DNA from: Chitinophagaceae bacterium | GTDB taxonomy: Bacteria > Bacteroidota > Bacteroidia > Chitinophagales > Chitinophagaceae | Assembly: GCA_027486835.1 (NCBI GenBank) | Contig: JAIXOJ010000204.1 | Coordinates: 1 to 63,063, forward strand | Length of the DNA stretch: 63,063 nt | Direction of reading: 5' to 3' | In this document: positions 15,573-41,524 of the stretch, piece after piece | Position numbering within the stretch: the stretch's first letter is position 1 | Layout of the letters: each line of letters opens with the position of its first letter | Translations under genes and position numbers: made by a program | Notes under the pieces: model-generated | What the model was told of the DNA's origin: nothing | The model's input: only the letters and a program-made list of their open reading frames with translations | Databases searched by the model: none

Positions 15573-16694
15573 TTAAACAGACCCTAACAAATATCCCGTA
15601 CTTCTTCCGCTTGCATCTTCTTTCACCAATATACCATTATCTATCAATTGCCGAATATCCCTTAATGCGGAATCGTGCGAGCATTTGGTAATATTTGCCC
15701 ATTTGGCGGTGGTTAATTTCCCTTCAAAACCATCCAATAATTTGTTTAGCATTATTCGTTGGCGGTCGCTTATGGAAGTATGGGTATGTTTATCCCAAAA
15801 CTGTGCTTTTTTCAATACCAAGCTCAGCCCTTGTTCGGACGAAAGCAAGGCTGCGTTTAAATTATCTAAAAACCATAGCAACCAATTCGTAATATCAATT
15901 CCTCCTTTTTGGGTAGCTTCCAAAATTTCATAATACCCTTTCCGTTCAGAACATATTTGTGCAGACATACTGTAAAACCTATGGGGACTACCGTCTGCCC
16001 TTGCCAATTGCATATCTGTAATGGTACGGGCAATCCTACCATTTCCATCAGCAAAGGGATGGATTGTTATGAACCATATATGCGCAATCGCAGCCTTTAG
16101 AACCGGGTCAATATCCATTGTAGCATTATACCATTCAATAAATGCTTGCATTTCTTGCTGCACTACGTCTGCCTTCGGTGCTTCGAAATGCACCTTTTCG
16201 TGTCCCACAGCCCCAGATACAACTTGCATTGCCCCATTTGAACCATCCCGCCAATTGCCTACCACAATTTTATACATACCACTTCTTCCTGTGGGGAAAA
16301 GAGCTGCATGCCAATCAAACAACCTTTCTCGGGATAACGGTAGCGTGAAATTTTGGGTTGCATCAAGCATCATTTCTACTACACCCTCTACATTTCTTTC
16401 AGAATGCACCAATCCAGCAACGTCCATCCCCAATCGTCGAGCGATGGAAGAGCGGACTTGTTCCCGACTCAAGATTTCCCCTTCAATTTCATTTGATTTT
16501 AAAACATCCAGAGTAAGTGTTGATAGCATTGCCTCGTCTTTTAAAGAGAAACCGAGGTTGCTCATTTTCCCCAACAACAGGCCTTGTTTAAACCTGATTT
16601 CAATAAGTTTTTGTAAAACCAAATCGCTATTCCAATGAAACCGAGGCCAATCCTTGAGTTGATGAATGTAGGTATCGTGGGTTATTCTACGCAT
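15573..16694 (-). CDS. Fic-family protein with inhibitory helix and C-terminal winged HTH
   Basis: I take ATG at 16694 (MRRITHDTYIHQ) as the start, giving 373 residues; the frame can extend four codons upstream to a TTG. The catalytic Fic motif HPFADGNGR is at about residues 212-220, so AMP transfer to a target hydroxyl is expected. An N-terminal domain of the kind seen in Fic proteins carries SNEIEGE (about 67-73), which fits the self-inhibitory (S/T)xxxE(G/N) motif of class II Fic proteins. The last 80 residues look like a winged helix (SDRQRIMLNKLLDGF, TKCSHDSALRDIRQL), suggesting DNA binding. No separate antitoxin gene is adjacent. An inverted repeat covers the start codon and may be its own operator. 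Confidence 0.92.
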   Translation of the reverse strand: MRRITHDTYIHQLKDWPRFHWNSDLVLQKLIEIRFKQGLLLGKMSNLGFSLKDEAMLSTLTLDVLKSNEIEGEILSREQVRSSIARRLGMDVAGLVHSERNVEGVVEMMLDATQNFTLPLSRERLFDWHAALFPTGRSGMYKIVVGNWRDGSNGAMQVVSGAVGHEKVHFEAPKADVVQQEMQAFIEWYNATMDIDPVLKAAIAHIWFITIHPFADGNGRIARTITDMQLARADGSPHRFYSMSAQICSERKGYYEILEATQKGGIDITNWLLWFLDNLNAALLSSEQGLSLVLKKAQFWDKHTHTSISDRQRIMLNKLLDGFEGKLTTAKWANITKCSHDSALRDIRQLIDNGILVKEDASGRSTGYLLGSV

Positions 16695-16703
16695 AATGTG
16701 CGT
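16689..16703. promoter_or_regulatory. Inverted repeat over the Fic start codon
   Basis: ACGCA-TAATG-TGCGT is a perfect 5-bp inverted repeat with a 5-bp spacer that includes the Fic start codon. The octamer TCTACGCA occurs at 16686-16693 and again at 16720-16727, 34 bp upstream, as a direct repeat. This looks like an operator for the HTH domain of the Fic protein; inference only. Confidence 0.4.
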
Positions 16704-16857
16704 CAAATATAGCGTTTAATCTACGCAAATAGTTACGGGAAAAATATGATTTATCCTGTGTTTATAAATCATATCATGATGAATATTTCCATTTCCTAAT
16801 CCTCCAACTTCAAATAGTTCTTATCAAAACTTATAATCACCTTCTTATATTGACCAA

Positions 16858-35054: not shown

Positions 35055-37814
35055 CTACTTATTCCCAATAAAAGTGTTAGCCTTCTTAATTTTTACATCC
35101 ACAGGTTCTAACCCCGATGTTGAAACCCTAAACACCGTTTTTTCTTCCAAGTATTCTTGACCTAAGAAAACAGCTATTCCATTTGCAGCATTTTTTGTTT
35201 CTGTTCGTATCAAGTTGTTTTGCTCGTCGAAAACTTCGAGCTTAATTTCATTTTTAGCATTGTCAACCAACAAATCATTATTCAAAAGTTCCACAAAAAT
35301 CCTTGTTTTTCGAGCTAACCATTTTGGGTCAACACCCATACAAATCCTTTCGGGAGGATTGGCAGTTACCAAAAGCTTATTAGGGGTTTCAGTTTTTGTT
35401 GCTTTTGCTATCAAGTTGGCTGCATTCGTTGGTTTTGCTTTTATGGTACAAACAAATCCACTATCTTCTGAAAAGAACCCTTTAGAAAGATAGACCGAGT
35501 CTCTTTCGGGATCATTATTTTGCCCCCTACTGTCGTAACCTAATTTCCAATGGTCGGTAGTCTTTACAAATAGCGTGTGAGAAGTATCATCATACCACCA
35601 AGCAGCTTGTTCTGTTTGATGAAGGAGTGATTCTTTGGAAGCTGACTTTTGGAGGTTCTTACCCTTACAAATTGCAGTTTCAATTTTTTCGAGGTGATGC
35701 ACTTGCAATAAGTAAGCTCGTTGGTTCATTTCTCTATATTTCCCAGTTCTTTTTCCTACTTGAACGGTTACCCCCATGTCGGTAGAGGTGACAGAAAAAT
35801 CTGTTTTTGCAAACTGATTCTTAGAATAATCCATTGTGTTACCATCGTCTTCATAAAGCCATCCTTTACCAGATTGTTTTCCTGGAAAAATGTCCAATGC
35901 AACCAAAATTGGGGGTTGTCCATGCAGGTTGGGGGTAACAGGTTGCAAGGGCAAAATACTTCCAGATTTCACAAACAAACCTCCCCCTTGCACACCTTTC
36001 AAACTTTGGTTTATCCATTGACCTTTGCTTACAAAACGTTCATTAGTCCAATAATCTACCCATTCCCCTTTGGGTAGATACACTTTTGATTCAAGCCCCA
36101 CTAGTAAGTTTTCTCCTAATAGATACTGTTTAGATAGATTCCAAGTAACCGAATCGTCTTGGTAAGCAAAAACCATTGGTCGCATCATAGGCGCACCGCT
36201 GAAATGCGATTGAGCTTGGGATGAATAGAGATAGGGCGTCAAACGATTCCTAAGCTTTCCATAAAAACGATGGGCTCGAAGCAAATAATTAGGATACAGC
36301 CATGGTTCATGGAAATATGCCCAAGCATCTATTAAAGCCAAGGGGCTAAGATAGCCCAAGTGAATTCCAGCCAATGAAGCAGCATCCATATCGTGGCTTA
36401 CCATAGATTGTGCTGCCAATCCTGCATTCAACAACCCTGTACCTGCTTTGGAATCACCTGCCCAACCAGTAGGCCAGCGATGTGAACCGAAGGAAGAAAC
36501 GTAAGAATTGAACAGAATAAATGTCCGTTGTCCCGTAATGCGTTGAAACTCATTGATGGCCGTTTCTGAATACAATGAATTGGCTAAGCTTTTAATAGAT
36601 TTATTGAAACGGGATTTTAAGGCTACCGTATCATTTACAAAAACCGCATCGTTCAACTCGGTACTTTGTAGCATTCTTGGATAAGGGTCGTCTTGTTTAA
36701 AAAAAGAAACTCCAATTTTTAATGAGGCTTTTATACGATCTGCATACCAATTTTTTTTTTTTTTTTTATCTTCATACCCAACAAAAGGGGCCTTCCCTGA
36801 TTCCCAAAGACCAAAATGAAACCCTTTCGCCCCCAGTTCCTTTATCATTTCTGAAGGTTTTGGAAAGCGTTCGGGACTCCATTTCCATTTCATACTGTAA
36901 GAACTATCTTCCCAACCTGGCTCTAAACTAATCATATCGCAGGGGATGTCGTGTTTCTTAAAGTTATTAGCGATTTCTAATACACCCTTTTGGTCTTCGT
37001 AATAGCGGCATATATATAAAAGACCCAAGCCCCAACGAGGAACCATCTGCGGAGCACCCGTAAGTTGAATATAGTTTTCAAGAATTGTGGCAAAATTGGC
37101 ACCACCTATTAGATAAAAATCCTGTTGACCATCTGCGGCTACAATATCAAATCCATTGGAACTTGAAGCAAAATCGAAGTGATGCTCCCAAGTATTGTTA
37201 GATAAAAAACCATAGCCCTTGGTACTTAGGAAAAAAGGTATGGTAGCATTTTCTGAACGGTATTCTCTTTTCCACGCAAAGGTTTTGCCTCGGCAATCCA
37301 TTGTTTTTCTTTGAAAACCTAATCCGAAAATATGTTCTTCTACTGGCATTTCAAATCTTAACCTACCACCACCTTTTGGCAACCATGCACTTGCAGCCCG
37401 TTGTTCAACTAATTCTTTTCCTTGGTTATCCAATAGAGCAATTTTTAGGTCTTGCTTGGATACTTTTACTGTTAGTGCCTCCCCTTTCAAGAGGGTAAAG
37501 CCTTCTTGGTCAATCACTTTAACAGGAGTTTCTTTCCAATCGTTCTTTACAAAACCAAATCTTTCCGTTAATGATGGTTCAAATCCAGCAGCGGGTGCCA
37601 ACTGTACACGAACTATGGAAGGATGAAGAAAACTGATTTTCATAGTCCAGCCTTCCTCTGTATGAATTAAGAATTTGCTCCCAGCTTTGTCTATCGTCGT
37701 TTGGTGGAGACTGAGTGAATCGTTGAAACTGTTTTTTAATTCAATATTTACTTGGCCTACAAGTATTCCTTTTATAGATATTAACAAAAGGAGCAAACAA
37801 AATATTTTTTTCAT
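35055..37814 (-). CDS. GH31-family glycosidase with an A17 tract in the coding sequence
   Basis: The 919-residue exported protein has a signal peptide (MKKIFCLLLLLISIKGILVGQ). It shows GH31 order: N-terminal beta-sandwich (about 25-250), barrel beginning PRWGLGLLYICRYY, nucleophile region GVSFFKQDDPYP (Asp375), acid/base WAGDSKAG (Asp454), then C-terminal beta domains. GH31 enzymes cleave alpha-glucosyl, alpha-xylosyl or alpha-galactosyl bonds; in this setting alpha-xylosidase or a related activity is plausible. A run of 17 A on the coding strand encodes Lys350-354 and part of Asn355, just before the nucleophile. The frame is intact at 17. It follows the interrupted beta-helix gene by 77 bp. 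Confidence 0.88.
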   Translation of the reverse strand: MKKIFCLLLLLISIKGILVGQVNIELKNSFNDSLSLHQTTIDKAGSKFLIHTEEGWTMKISFLHPSIVRVQLAPAAGFEPSLTERFGFVKNDWKETPVKVIDQEGFTLLKGEALTVKVSKQDLKIALLDNQGKELVEQRAASAWLPKGGGRLRFEMPVEEHIFGLGFQRKTMDCRGKTFAWKREYRSENATIPFFLSTKGYGFLSNNTWEHHFDFASSSNGFDIVAADGQQDFYLIGGANFATILENYIQLTGAPQMVPRWGLGLLYICRYYEDQKGVLEIANNFKKHDIPCDMISLEPGWEDSSYSMKWKWSPERFPKPSEMIKELGAKGFHFGLWESGKAPFVGYEDKKKKKNWYADRIKASLKIGVSFFKQDDPYPRMLQSTELNDAVFVNDTVALKSRFNKSIKSLANSLYSETAINEFQRITGQRTFILFNSYVSSFGSHRWPTGWAGDSKAGTGLLNAGLAAQSMVSHDMDAASLAGIHLGYLSPLALIDAWAYFHEPWLYPNYLLRAHRFYGKLRNRLTPYLYSSQAQSHFSGAPMMRPMVFAYQDDSVTWNLSKQYLLGENLLVGLESKVYLPKGEWVDYWTNERFVSKGQWINQSLKGVQGGGLFVKSGSILPLQPVTPNLHGQPPILVALDIFPGKQSGKGWLYEDDGNTMDYSKNQFAKTDFSVTSTDMGVTVQVGKRTGKYREMNQRAYLLQVHHLEKIETAICKGKNLQKSASKESLLHQTEQAAWWYDDTSHTLFVKTTDHWKLGYDSRGQNNDPERDSVYLSKGFFSEDSGFVCTIKAKPTNAANLIAKATKTETPNKLLVTANPPERICMGVDPKWLARKTRIFVELLNNDLLVDNAKNEIKLEVFDEQNNLIRTETKNAANGIAVFLGQEYLEEKTVFRVSTSGLEPVDVKIKKANTFIGNK
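36751..36767. repeat. T17/A17 homopolymer within the GH31 gene
   Basis: Seventeen T on the plus strand (A on the coding strand) code for five Lys plus the first two bases of Asn355 of the GH31 protein. Loss or gain of one base would truncate the enzyme just before its catalytic Asp. Confidence 0.92.
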
Positions 37815-38973
37815 AGCATTTCGAAGTATTAAAAATGAATCCTAATTGTGAACCAAAGTAGCGAGGTTGCTTTATTAAATTATATGCCCTCCTATTTAAA
37901 AACATTGCTTGAAGTATCAATTCCTACGACAGCACCCGTGTTGAAATAGCATTTTTGTTTTCGATTATCCATAAAAGTGTTGCCATTAATTTCAAGCTTG
38001 GTTTCACTAGGCCGTCCTCCCACATGTAGCATAGGTATTGGCCGCCTACCAGTAATTTTTGGGTAATCATTTTCTATGGTTCGCTTGTCCAATTCGCTAG
38101 GATAATCTTTATACAGCTTGCAAGTATTGTTGCGAACAATAAACTGTTCGATAAAAAGTGGCGAATCAGCTTGCTTATTGTCAATCCCCAACATGATGCA
38201 ACCATAAACACAAGCGTTAAACCCTTTGGTAGGATTAGCAATATGGCGCATCGGGAAATCCATCCCATATTCTTGTAGGCAATTATTGTTTTCTATGATT
38301 ACTTCTTTGGTGCTTTCAGTGGTTTTTGTTTGTGCATGATAAGCAATGCAGGCGTAGGCACAATTCCAAATGGTATTGTTTCGGATAATACCTGCATTGC
38401 GCAATGAAATACCAGAGCCGTAAAAACAATTATAAATCGTATTTCCTTCTACCAAAATATCGGCAGCTTTCAAATACATGCCATGACGAGCAAATGGCAA
38501 TCGGGTAACCCCAAGCCCAATATCATGAATGATGTTGTTACGCACCACACCTCCTTTAAATGGCAGTTTGGCCAATTCAGGAGATTGGTCGTTTTGGTCG
38601 CCTTTTACTTCAAACTTTACCGCATCGTCATATATGTAAGCTATGCGATTGCTTTCAATAGTAATATCGGAAGTGGTTTGATTATTATCGCCTGTGATTC
38701 TAACCCCTTGTCCAAAAACATCGATTATCTTAGAATTTTTCACAATAGTTTGCGTGCAGTTTACCAACTGAATGCCATAACCATTGGGTTCTATGAAGAT
38801 ATAAGCTGTATCGAATTTTCCTTTGCGATTTTCAAGGTTCATAATGGCTTCATTACCTACTCCCGAAATTCGACAATTGGAAATCTCCACATGTTTACAA
38901 TTGACCAGTCTAATACCATAAGTCCCGCTAGGGTTGGAGATGGTGCAATTTTTTATCTGCACATCGCTTTTGT

Positions 38974-38979
38974 TTTCAA
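38974..38979. repeat. 6-bp target-site duplication, left copy
   Basis: TTTCAA directly flanks the left terminal inverted repeat. The identical TTTCAA is at 39326-39331 beside the right end. Confidence 0.88.
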
Positions 38980-39325
38980 CCCTAACTCCGCAGAAATTAG
39001 GTAGTCTATCTTAATTATTCGTGGATGATCTCTTAAAACGTCACATTTTGTTGCTTTTTGTATCAATAAATAATACTTTTGGCTAAACTTTTCAAATTCC
39101 TTTAAGCTACCTAATTAGGTAGCTTATGGATATGCCCCAGTGGGTTCTTGCATCCAATGAACCAAAGCCAGAAATAAGATTTATGAAAGGAGTTTACTTC
39201 AAAATCGCTGTATATTATTAATATAATCACTTCAAAAAGGTAGAGGATTAGCTGAAATAACAAAAAATACAACTTCCGTCATTGAAAAGATAATTTTAGA
39301 CTACCTAAATTGAGCGGAGTTAGGG
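38980..39325. mobile_element. MITE-like non-autonomous element, 346 bp
   Basis: Terminal inverted repeats of about 29 bp begin CCCTAACTCCGC (left) and end GCGGAGTTAGGG (right). They match again at AGGTAGTCTA after a 7-bp variable stretch. A 6-bp duplication (TTTCAA) flanks the element on both sides. The centre has a perfect 24-bp palindrome (39103-39126) built around CTACCTAATTAGGTAG, echoing the TTAGGTAG of the ends. No transposase frame is inside, so it must depend on an enzyme encoded elsewhere. It interrupts a beta-helix gene, whose frame is restored in silico by its removal. Confidence 0.9.
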
Positions 39326-39331
39326 TTTCAA
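39326..39331. repeat. 6-bp target-site duplication, right copy
   Basis: TTTCAA immediately after the right terminal inverted repeat, identical to 38974-38979. Confidence 0.88.
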
Positions 39332-39590
39332 TCAATAGTCCCTTTTCATAGTTCTTTCCTTCTATCATTTCCGACCACTTTTGAGAAAATCCCATGAGAT
39401 AGCCCATTGACAATAAGATAAAAAGAAAGCCTTTTTGTGTTTTGAAATACATCTCGAATAATTTATTTAGACCGTTAAGAAAATAATGAAAGCATATTCT
39501 ATGCTTGAATGATAATGAAAGCGTAAAAGAAGCTTTTAAAAGTTTTACAATAGACAGGATAAAGCAATGAGCGAGAATTGGCTAAAAATC

Positions 39591-39624
39591 AAACATCCCG
39601 AAAACTGAATGCTTTCGGGATGTT
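39591..39624 (-). terminator. Terminator-like hairpin after GH97
   Basis: AACATCCCGAAA (39592-39603) pairs perfectly with TTTCGGGATGTT (39613-39624). On the minus strand it is followed by TGATTTTTA. It lies 80 bp past the GH97 stop and before the split beta-helix gene. Confidence 0.7.
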
Positions 39625-39703
39625 GATACAAAAAACGAACTATGAACCCCAAAATAATTAGGCACATTCTTGTCCGTTCCGCCGCTATACCGCATAAAGG
39701 AAC

Positions 39704-41524
39704 TTACTTCTTCGGAATAAACCTAAGTGCAACGCCTCCTTTTGCTACCAATGAAAATGTTTGAATGTCCTTGCTATTGGTGACTTGTTTGGATACTTTT
39801 CCCTCTGCATCCGTGTAAACCCACACTTCGTATTGCTTTTTCTTGGATAGAAAATCGGTCGGAATGGTGATGGTTCTTGCATCGTTGTTGGTTATGGCGC
39901 CTACAAACCACTCCTCTCCTTTTCTTCTAGCAATGGTTACGTTGGTGCCGGGTTCACCATCCAATACTTTGGTTTCCTCCCAAGTGGTGGGAAGGTATTT
40001 CCAAAGTTCTATTTCATCTCTATTGGTATAATTTTCGGGTCTTCCATACCAGTACAATGTTTGTAATGGACTATAATTGATGATCGACAAAGCCAATTGG
40101 TGGCATTTGGTGTTCAGCAACCTTTTTTCATTGAAACAATAGGTATAATCTGCCGCACCTGCAATAAATCTAGTAAAAGGCAGAATGGTATTGTGTGTTG
40201 CATCGGGAAATTCCTCATTTCCCCTTACCCCTTCTTGGGTGAGCAAATTAGGCCAAGTTCTGCTCCAGCCTGTTGGCGTAAATTCATCGTGTATGTCTAA
40301 TATCAATCCATAATGCGCCGCTTTTTTCACGGCATCATAAAGCCAGGTTGTCCATCTGTGAGACCCAGTGTGTACAAAACCATATTTTACCCCAGCCACT
40401 CCCCAACTTTTAAATAAAGGCAAAATAGTATCGAGTTGTCGCTCCATGGCGCGGTGGTTTACGTATAATAGCACGCCTTTACCCCTTGCTTTGCCGTAAG
40501 CAATCACCTCTTTCAAATCCAAACTTTTTAATGGGGATACCTTGGTGGCATCCGAAGCCACTTCATATTCGCTGCCGTACCATCCGGCATCAAACAAGAT
40601 ATAATCAATTTGCTGCTCCACGGCAAAGTCAATCAATTTCTTTGCGCCCACCGTGCTTAAAGTCATTTCACGCATCACTTTCCCTGGCTTGATCCAATCT
40701 GTATTGGTCAATGGGGTTGGCGGATTTAGGTTTTGGATAATAAAATTATTTTCCAACAATGCGCCTGGTTTTTCAGCCACCATCACCACGCGCCAAGGGC
40801 TGCCAAAAGGGGATGTTTCAGTGAGTTCGCCAAACAATCTGCTTTGCAATTGGTCAGTTGCCACTGTATGTAAGCGCATCCTCGGAAAATTAGATTGGTC
40901 GGCTTGCGCAATACAGGCCCATAAACCGTTGGAGAGATGTAAAGTAAGTGGCAATTCAGCCCCTGAAGTCCATCCAGTCAACGCTTTTTCTTCGTAAGCC
41001 CCCTGCGCATTTTTGGTAAAAAATGCCTTGCTATTGCTTGGAAATATAAAATTGGTCTCTTCTTGGCCTATATCCGCAATTTGGTATTTCCTATTTTCCG
41101 GGAAAAAATACTTAAATGCCACTCCTTCGTTATAAGCCCGAACGATTATTTGCATGGTAATGCCCGCTCTGTTTTTTGTTTCTAACGCTACAACAAGTTC
41201 ATTGTACTTATCTGCTATTTCCGAGCGTTCGCCATAAACGGGTTTCCACACGGAATTGGTGGATTTTTTTTCTGTTTTTGTAATACTAAATTGACTGTTC
41301 CAATTATTGCCAGCATATTGTGCTTTGGTTAACCCCAAGCCAGATGGCAAAATAATGGGCCGTTGTTTGTATTGAACCTCATAGGCTATTTTACCATCGG
41401 CATTTAAGATAAACCGATAAGAAAGTTTTCCATCAGGAGAGGAAACTTGCAAAGAATCTTGGGCATTTACTTTTCCAATAAATAAACATACCACAAAACA
41501 TAACACCATTTTTTCTATTCTCAT
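39704..41524 (-). CDS. GH97-family alpha-glycosidase, secreted
   Basis: This 606-residue protein has a signal peptide (1-21, to VNAQ), an N-terminal beta-sandwich with the GH97 opening SSPDGKLSYRFILNADGKIAYEV, a catalytic barrel, and a C-terminal beta domain. Gly382 (GVKYGFV) sits where retaining GH97 enzymes have the nucleophile Asp, as in inverting SusB-type members. PNLLTQEGVRGNEEF supplies Glu431 and the following acids. In HDEFTPTG, the position of SusB Glu439 appears to be Asp413, with Glu414 next to it; this alignment is from memory. It would hydrolyse alpha-glucosides or related bonds by inversion. A hairpin terminator follows, separating it from the interrupted beta-helix gene. Confidence 0.88.
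   Translation of the reverse strand: MRIEKMVLCFVVCLFIGKVNAQDSLQVSSPDGKLSYRFILNADGKIAYEVQYKQRPIILPSGLGLTKAQYAGNNWNSQFSITKTEKKSTNSVWKPVYGERSEIADKYNELVVALETKNRAGITMQIIVRAYNEGVAFKYFFPENRKYQIADIGQEETNFIFPSNSKAFFTKNAQGAYEEKALTGWTSGAELPLTLHLSNGLWACIAQADQSNFPRMRLHTVATDQLQSRLFGELTETSPFGSPWRVVMVAEKPGALLENNFIIQNLNPPTPLTNTDWIKPGKVMREMTLSTVGAKKLIDFAVEQQIDYILFDAGWYGSEYEVASDATKVSPLKSLDLKEVIAYGKARGKGVLLYVNHRAMERQLDTILPLFKSWGVAGVKYGFVHTGSHRWTTWLYDAVKKAAHYGLILDIHDEFTPTGWSRTWPNLLTQEGVRGNEEFPDATHNTILPFTRFIAGAADYTYCFNEKRLLNTKCHQLALSIINYSPLQTLYWYGRPENYTNRDEIELWKYLPTTWEETKVLDGEPGTNVTIARRKGEEWFVGAITNNDARTITIPTDFLSKKKQYEVWVYTDAEGKVSKQVTNSKDIQTFSLVAKGGVALRFIPKK

What the first reader, a model, noticed from the sequence alone, without database searches (positions are those of the whole stretch)
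37892..39452. A 346-bp MITE-like element splits a secreted beta-helix gene; in silico excision restores it
Terminal inverted repeats with 12 identical outer bases, a perfect 6-bp TTTCAA duplication, and an exact in-frame join (1209 bp, 402 residues, signal peptide through beta-helix) together show a recent insertion. The joined junction GLLIE+NKSDVQIKNC reads as normal beta-helix sequence. It inactivates one enzyme or binding protein in the cluster, or leaves a switchable allele if the element still moves.
Basis: seen in the sequence. Interest (0 to 1): 0.8.

Follow-up and report, generated by a model that had tools for sequence, protein, structure and literature searches.

The report
Miniature IS1634 element splits beta-helix gene
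A small crippled jumping DNA element, a shrunken relative of the IS1634 insertion sequences, sits inside a secreted beta-helix protein gene of a Bacteroidota bacterium and breaks it; the kind of event is ordinary.

Summary
A 346-bp element (38980-39325) with 12 identical terminal bases and a perfect TTTCAA duplication splits a minus-strand beta-helix gene (39452-37892). Without the element and one duplication the frame is 1209 bp, 402 residues, and aligns without a gap across the junction to a 51%-identical paralogue on another contig. New here is the identity: an internally deleted derivative of an IS1634-family insertion sequence. Full-length relatives (about 1.59 kb) share the CCCTAACTCCGC ends, TTAA-type targets, the palindrome before the transposase start, and both ends of the transposase gene. 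The own assembly holds one detected copy and no detected IS1634 transposase, so nothing shows that it can still move; a switchable allele is unsupported. A mild oddity: both ends are of the 3' type of the five closest full relatives, whose two ends differ; some more distant IS1634 relatives do have two like ends. IS1634-derived MITEs are already published for Methanosarcina (PMC3852290). Verdict: real, read correctly in outline, ordinary in kind.

The parts
38980..39325 (+). 346-bp non-autonomous, internally deleted IS1634-family element (transposase remnant on +)
   Evidence: terminal repeats and duplication; homology of its 5' and 3' parts to full-length IS1634-family elements
38980..39008 (+). 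left terminal inverted repeat CCCTAACTCCGC..TTAGGTAGTCTA
39297..39325 (-). right terminal inverted repeat CCCTAACTCCGC..TTAGGTAGTCTA; overlaps the last codons of the transposase remnant
38974..38979 (.). target duplication TTTCAA, left copy
39326..39331 (.). target duplication TTTCAA, right copy
39103..39126 (.). 24-bp perfect palindrome at the transposase start; its half-sites resemble the inner part of the terminal repeats. Present in all five full-length relatives aligned; its 16-nt core is a perfect palindrome in G017 and has one mismatched pair or more in G435, G409, G206 and G428
39126..39253 (+). remnant of transposase codons 1 to about 40, in-frame stop at codon 32, then the deletion junction (about 39235-39253, placed by eye)
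39254..39313 (+). remnant of the last about 20 transposase codons, in another frame
39332..39452 (-). 5' part of the split beta-helix gene (start codon, signal-peptide-like N-terminus by eye)
37892..38979 (-). 3' part of the split beta-helix gene (Pfam Beta_helix PF13229, E 4.9e-20, for the listed ORF 37892-38962, 356 aa from GTG)

Best explanation
An IS1634-family insertion sequence lost about 1.25 kb of its transposase gene by internal deletion, leaving both ends and the subterminal palindrome. An IS1634 transposase acting in trans, from an element not detected in this assembly, moved the 346-bp remnant into a TTTCAA site at codons 42-43 of a secreted beta-helix gene and made a 6-bp duplication. 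The insertion (+352 bp, frame changed, stop inside the element) cuts the protein to 57 residues and most likely inactivates it; the GH31 gene downstream on the same strand may suffer polar loss. Shown: ends, duplication, homology, broken frame. Inferred: movement in trans, loss of function, polarity, absence of the helper.
For: Ends and duplication. A full-length IS in G017 (1588 bp between TTTAAA on both sides) encodes a 490-aa protein, NCBIfam IS1634 E 2.5e-40, 139 bits against a cut-off of 100. The element aligns to five such IS at its 5' end (palindrome, transposase codons 1 to about 40) and at its 3' end (last about 20 codons); blastn against G017 gives 68% over 139 nt and 72% over 78 nt. 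Of 27 distinct non-own ends that fit the end motif, 25 have TTAA at positions 2-5 of the flanking hexamer; TTTCAA differs from the commonest, TTTAAA (11 of 27), by one base. The gene aligns without a gap across the insertion point to the paralogue on C39. In the own assembly only the remnant answers to the transposase at E <= 0.001, and no other place carries the exact end motif.
Against: One detected copy only, so movement as a small element is not shown. No closer parent was found: the best stretches of 74 nt or more reach 75-77%. No orthologous empty site: with the joined protein 1 of 196 genomes, the own, matched at E <= 1e-8, so the empty site rests on a paralogue. The target core TTCA is off the family's TTAA. 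Repeats of this minimal form alone occur in 3 of 100 shuffled windows.
Confidence: 0.8

Rival explanations
1. A full-length IS1634 element inserted here and lost its middle in situ; the 346 bp never moved as a unit.
For: One detected copy in the assembly; only partial matches, no second short form, in the genomes searched; both transposase ends still present.
Against: The remnant has an in-frame stop at codon 32 and 48% identity to the G017 transposase over 46 codons, while the host gene shows no break in 402 codons; both ends are 3'-type, unlike the closest full IS. The last about 20 codons of the remnant are open, so the decay argument rests on few sites: moderate, not decisive.
Confidence: 0.18
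2. Switchable allele: the element excises precisely now and then and restores the gene.
For: Without the element and one duplication the frame is whole.
Against: No IS1634 transposase detected in the own assembly; precise excision is rare for most DDE elements (recalled, not tested); any gene with a fresh insertion would show the same.
Confidence: 0.04
3. Not a transposable element: chance repeats, an assembly error or an invertible segment.
For: Only that 3 of 100 shuffles show a repeat pair of this minimal form.
Against: Homology to IS1634 ends and transposase; the site lies in mid-contig; turning the segment over would leave the frame broken.
Confidence: 0.01

Closest known systems
IS1634-family insertion sequences (NCBIfam NF033559); example G017:C14, same stretch as public contig CAIYTT010000014.1 (uncultured Bacteroidetes MAG)
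   Same: CCCTAACTCCGC ends, 6-bp target duplication, palindrome at the transposase start, transposase end codons inside the right repeat
   Different: 346 bp instead of about 1590; middle of the transposase missing; remnant frame broken; left end carries GGTA where the left ends of the five closest IS carry CCCC
IS1634-derived MITEs of Methanosarcina barkeri (247 bp, 23 copies, IR 20, DR 6) and M. acetivorans (249 bp, 15 copies, IR 18, DR 0) (PMC3852290, section 16 read)
   Same: short, IS1634-type ends, no transposase; 6-bp duplication in the M. barkeri case
   Different: multi-copy and in archaea; here one detected copy, with internal homology to related IS beyond the ends
MITECca01 of Cardinium, about 240 bp, from an IS982 element (PMC9769881, passages read)
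   Same: IS-derived miniature element in a bacterium of the Bacteroidota (placement recalled)
   Different: other IS family, many copies, parental IS present in the same genome
187-nt MITE in the Microcystis sbp gene, ascribed to an ISL3-type transposase (PMC11448079, passages read)
   Same: miniature element splitting a protein-coding gene
   Different: other IS family, 31-33 copies, new insertions seen between strains

Membership tests
IS1634-derived non-autonomous element | terminal inverted repeats of the IS | tested here: met
   exact right-end motif found in 9 of 394 family genomes, the own included
IS1634-derived non-autonomous element | target duplication of the IS's length | tested here: met
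   6 bp here; matching hexamers on both sides of L055, L064 and the frame-broken copy L070; L062 and L063 lack a matching pair
IS1634-derived non-autonomous element | internal homology to the transposase gene, no working transposase | tested here: met
MITE in the strict sense | multiple copies in the genome | tested here: not met
   one copy in the own assembly (40 of 47 candidates scored); no second short form in 196 relatives, 394 family and 396 order genomes, overlapping sets in which only 2-3 candidates per genome were scored
MITE in the strict sense | autonomous partner in the same genome | tested here: not met
   only the remnant matches the transposase at E <= 0.001; a draft of 219 contigs, so absence is not absolute
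MITE in the strict sense | movement by a transposase in trans | not testable with these tools
   needs an experiment

The most novel reading that the evidence does not exclude
The element carries two ends of the 3' type (inner TTAGGTAGTCTA), whereas its five closest full-length relatives have an unlike 5' end (TTACCCC..). It may be a symmetrised substrate, with two ends of the stronger-binding kind plus a palindrome of the same half-sites inside, that a transposase from elsewhere uses better than its own element.
Probability: 0.15. Interest if true: 0.35.

Novelty: new member of a known kind. Interest (0 to 1): 0.2.

Why it matters
It explains one broken gene in a sugar-degrading cluster, ties an unlabelled miniature element to the IS1634 family and its TTAA-type target, and shows that a single remnant can be traced to its family in a draft genome without a detectable helper. 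It opens no question of general weight.

Tried and rejected
IS982 was my first guess from the ACCC ends (recalled); the profile search placed the related transposase in IS1634 instead (IS982 25.6 bits against a cut-off of 130).

A 30-nt match on G000:C118 lies in the element's middle and not at an end: taken as chance. The 13-nt end with up to 2 mismatches gave 62 sites in the own genome, 2 of them the element's ends; the reversed control gave more (90), so these are background. Of the 60 others, 28 were fetched and read, none with the inner half next to it; 32 were not read. The inner half with up to 1 mismatch gave 9 sites, 2 of them the element's own; the control gave 12.

The transposase was not found in phages, nor confirmed in viral contigs (2 candidate stretches, none a relative); on plasmids it gave only partial matches of 24.7-28% in 3 records. 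The exact end motif is absent from viral contigs. Promoter-like sites (6 against a mean of 7.0 in shuffles) and terminator-like sites (2 against 1.5) in 37800-39750 are no more than chance. A paper search for 'IS1634 family' with 'non-autonomous' and 'target site duplication' gave no paper. PMC3542288 (one passage) only lists an IS1634 element in a table.

Full report
Observation. The sequence 38980-39325 is bounded by CCCTAACTCCGC at both ends (inverted) and by TTTCAA on both sides; the inverted arms extend to 42 nt at 83% complementarity. The gene around it runs on the minus strand from 39452 to 37892. As it stands, translation from its start ends within the element after 57 codons. With the element and one duplication left out in a script, 1209 nt give 402 residues and one terminal stop. 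A repeat pair of this minimal form occurs once in the window and in 3 of 100 shuffled windows, so the repeats alone are suggestive; the homology below settles it.

Empty site. The joined protein matches a paralogue on G000:C39 (51% identity over residues 6-336). A tblastn alignment extends to residue 387 with 11% gaps overall, and runs without a gap through residues 42-43, where the element sits. Two weaker matches in the own genome (C55:60390-61232 and C39:2200-2517) are also without a gap at that point. Of 196 genomes searched, only the own matched at E <= 1e-8, so there is no orthologous empty site.

Identity of the element. Searching the element in 196 relatives gave matches in 6 genomes at E <= 0.001, the own included. 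Those in G022, G115 and G123 are 22-32 nt inside the element and were set aside; G042 has an end at a contig edge. G017 has end matches on two contigs and a 75%-identical internal match of 81 nt. Its locus L055 holds a complete insertion sequence, 1588 bp between TTTAAA on both sides, with a 490-aa open frame. That protein matches the NCBIfam IS1634 transposase model at 139 bits (cut-off 100) and Pfam DDE_Tnp_1 at E 2.5e-18. Matches to the transposase at E <= 1e-20 occur in 11 of 394 family genomes and relatives at 7 loci of the genome-contig collection, two of these labelled Alphaproteobacteria. L055 is the same stretch as a contig labelled uncultured Bacteroidetes, and G017 is in the window's family, hence my placing of the window in the Bacteroidota.

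Anatomy against the parent. I aligned the element with five full-length elements (G017, G435, G409, G206, G428), the closer ones of eight extracted; the three more distant ones (L066, L075, L080) were left out. Shared: the outer 12 bases (11 of 12 at the right end of G206); a palindrome around CTACCTAATTAGGTAG at the transposase start; transposase codons 1 to about 40; and the last about 20 codons, which run into the right repeat. The palindrome's core is perfect in the element and in G017 and imperfect in the other four; in G409 and G206 one outer pair changes on both arms together. Missing: about 1.25 kb of the gene. Extra: about 30-45 bp in the left untranslated part. The remnant has a stop at codon 32, and its two parts are in different frames. 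The longest open frames of the five relatives are 488-511 codons. Folded as a single DNA strand the element is stable (z -6.4 against 100 shuffles), as expected from inverted ends and palindrome.

Ends. In the closest relatives, left ends carry TTACCCC and right ends TTAGGTAGTCTA. Five copies with both ends fitting these motifs (L055, L062, L063, L064, L070) have one of each, and so has G435, whose right end lies at a contig edge. The 346-bp element has the right-end type on both sides. Against reading much into this: two of the more distant relatives, L075 and L066, have two like ends (L075 with GGTA on both), seen. The exact right-end motif occurs in 9 of 394 family genomes, and only the own has two of them facing each other at short distance.

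Targets. Of 27 distinct non-own ends that fit the motif, 25 have TTAA at positions 2-5; the exceptions are TTTACT and TCTAAA. The two ends of one copy count twice here. Ends outside the motif were not counted; among those, L066, L069, L079, L080, L081 and L082 have TTAA, L065 (ACCAAA) and L075 (CTATAA) do not. Matching hexamers flank L055, L064 and L070; L062 and L063 lack a matching pair. The element's own TTTCAA is one base off.

Own genome. The assembly (6.40 Mb, 219 contigs, completeness 99.33) has one copy (40 of 47 candidates scored), no other place with the exact end motif, and no match to the transposase at E <= 0.001 other than the remnant. In several relatives the IS shows as stubs of about 115-135 bp at contig starts, a sign of collapsed copies; the exact motif shows no such stub in the own assembly. 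A helper lost in assembly, or one with diverged ends, cannot be excluded. In some searches only 2-3 candidates per genome were scored, so a weak second copy elsewhere could have been missed.

Age. Of 3618 possible single changes in the joined gene 157 make a stop. By arithmetic, about 68 random substitutions leave about a 5% chance of no stop: an upper bound of about 5.6% divergence since loss of constraint; frameshifts would tighten it. This fits a fairly recent insertion and does not date it.

Effect. The gene lies in a region with GH88, GH43, GH97, GH31, GH42 and heparinase-like proteins, further beta-helix proteins, and a GH28 protein some 25 kb away, so it likely acts on a polysaccharide (inference). 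A terminator-like site at 39624-39592 on the minus strand lies between it and the GH97 gene upstream, though such sites are no commoner here than in shuffles (2 against 1.5); the GH31 gene follows 77 bp downstream. The insertion most likely removes the beta-helix protein and may reduce GH31 expression; the paralogue on C39 might partly stand in (inference).

In print. IS1634-derived MITEs are listed for Methanosarcina barkeri (247 bp, 23 copies, DR 6) and M. acetivorans (249 bp, 15 copies, DR 0) in PMC3852290 (section 16 read). That paper also reports MITE-like elements without a partner IS and names loss of the IS as one explanation. PMC11448079 and PMC9769881 (passages) describe an ISL3-type MITE splitting a Microcystis gene and an IS982-derived MITE in Cardinium. 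Searches made: by family terms only; none listed this particular element.

Verdict. The finding is real and its outline right; the element is a new, apparently single-copy member of a known kind, a non-autonomous IS1634 derivative. I do not file it as a MITE in the strict sense, because copy number and a resident partner were tested and not met.

Noticed in passing
L056:2914-3029 (G017:C98): A solitary 116-nt 3' end of the IS1634 element, 100% identical to the full copy in L055, lies in mid-contig with no partner end in the 6 kb fetched: a one-ended remnant or rearranged copy.
   Followed up: partly
window 39103-39126 and the matching place in five full-length IS: The palindrome at the transposase start resembles paired inner half-sites of the ends, so it could serve as an operator or as an RNA hairpin over the start region (function inferred).
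   Followed up: partly
L070 / L073 (G206:C1:3872815-3874282): A second IS1634 copy in a single-contig genome whose transposase falls into two overlapping pieces, with TTTAAA on both sides.
   Followed up: no
window 22760-61772: Large region of sugar-degrading genes with several beta-helix proteins; contig C39 of the same genome appears to carry paralogues of two of them.
   Followed up: partly
window 15573-16706: DUF4172 plus Fic/DOC domain protein beside the region.
   Followed up: no
L081, L082: IS1634 relatives with CCCTAACCCCGC ends on contigs labelled Alphaproteobacteria PG1894: transfer between phyla or mis-assigned contigs.
   Followed up: no
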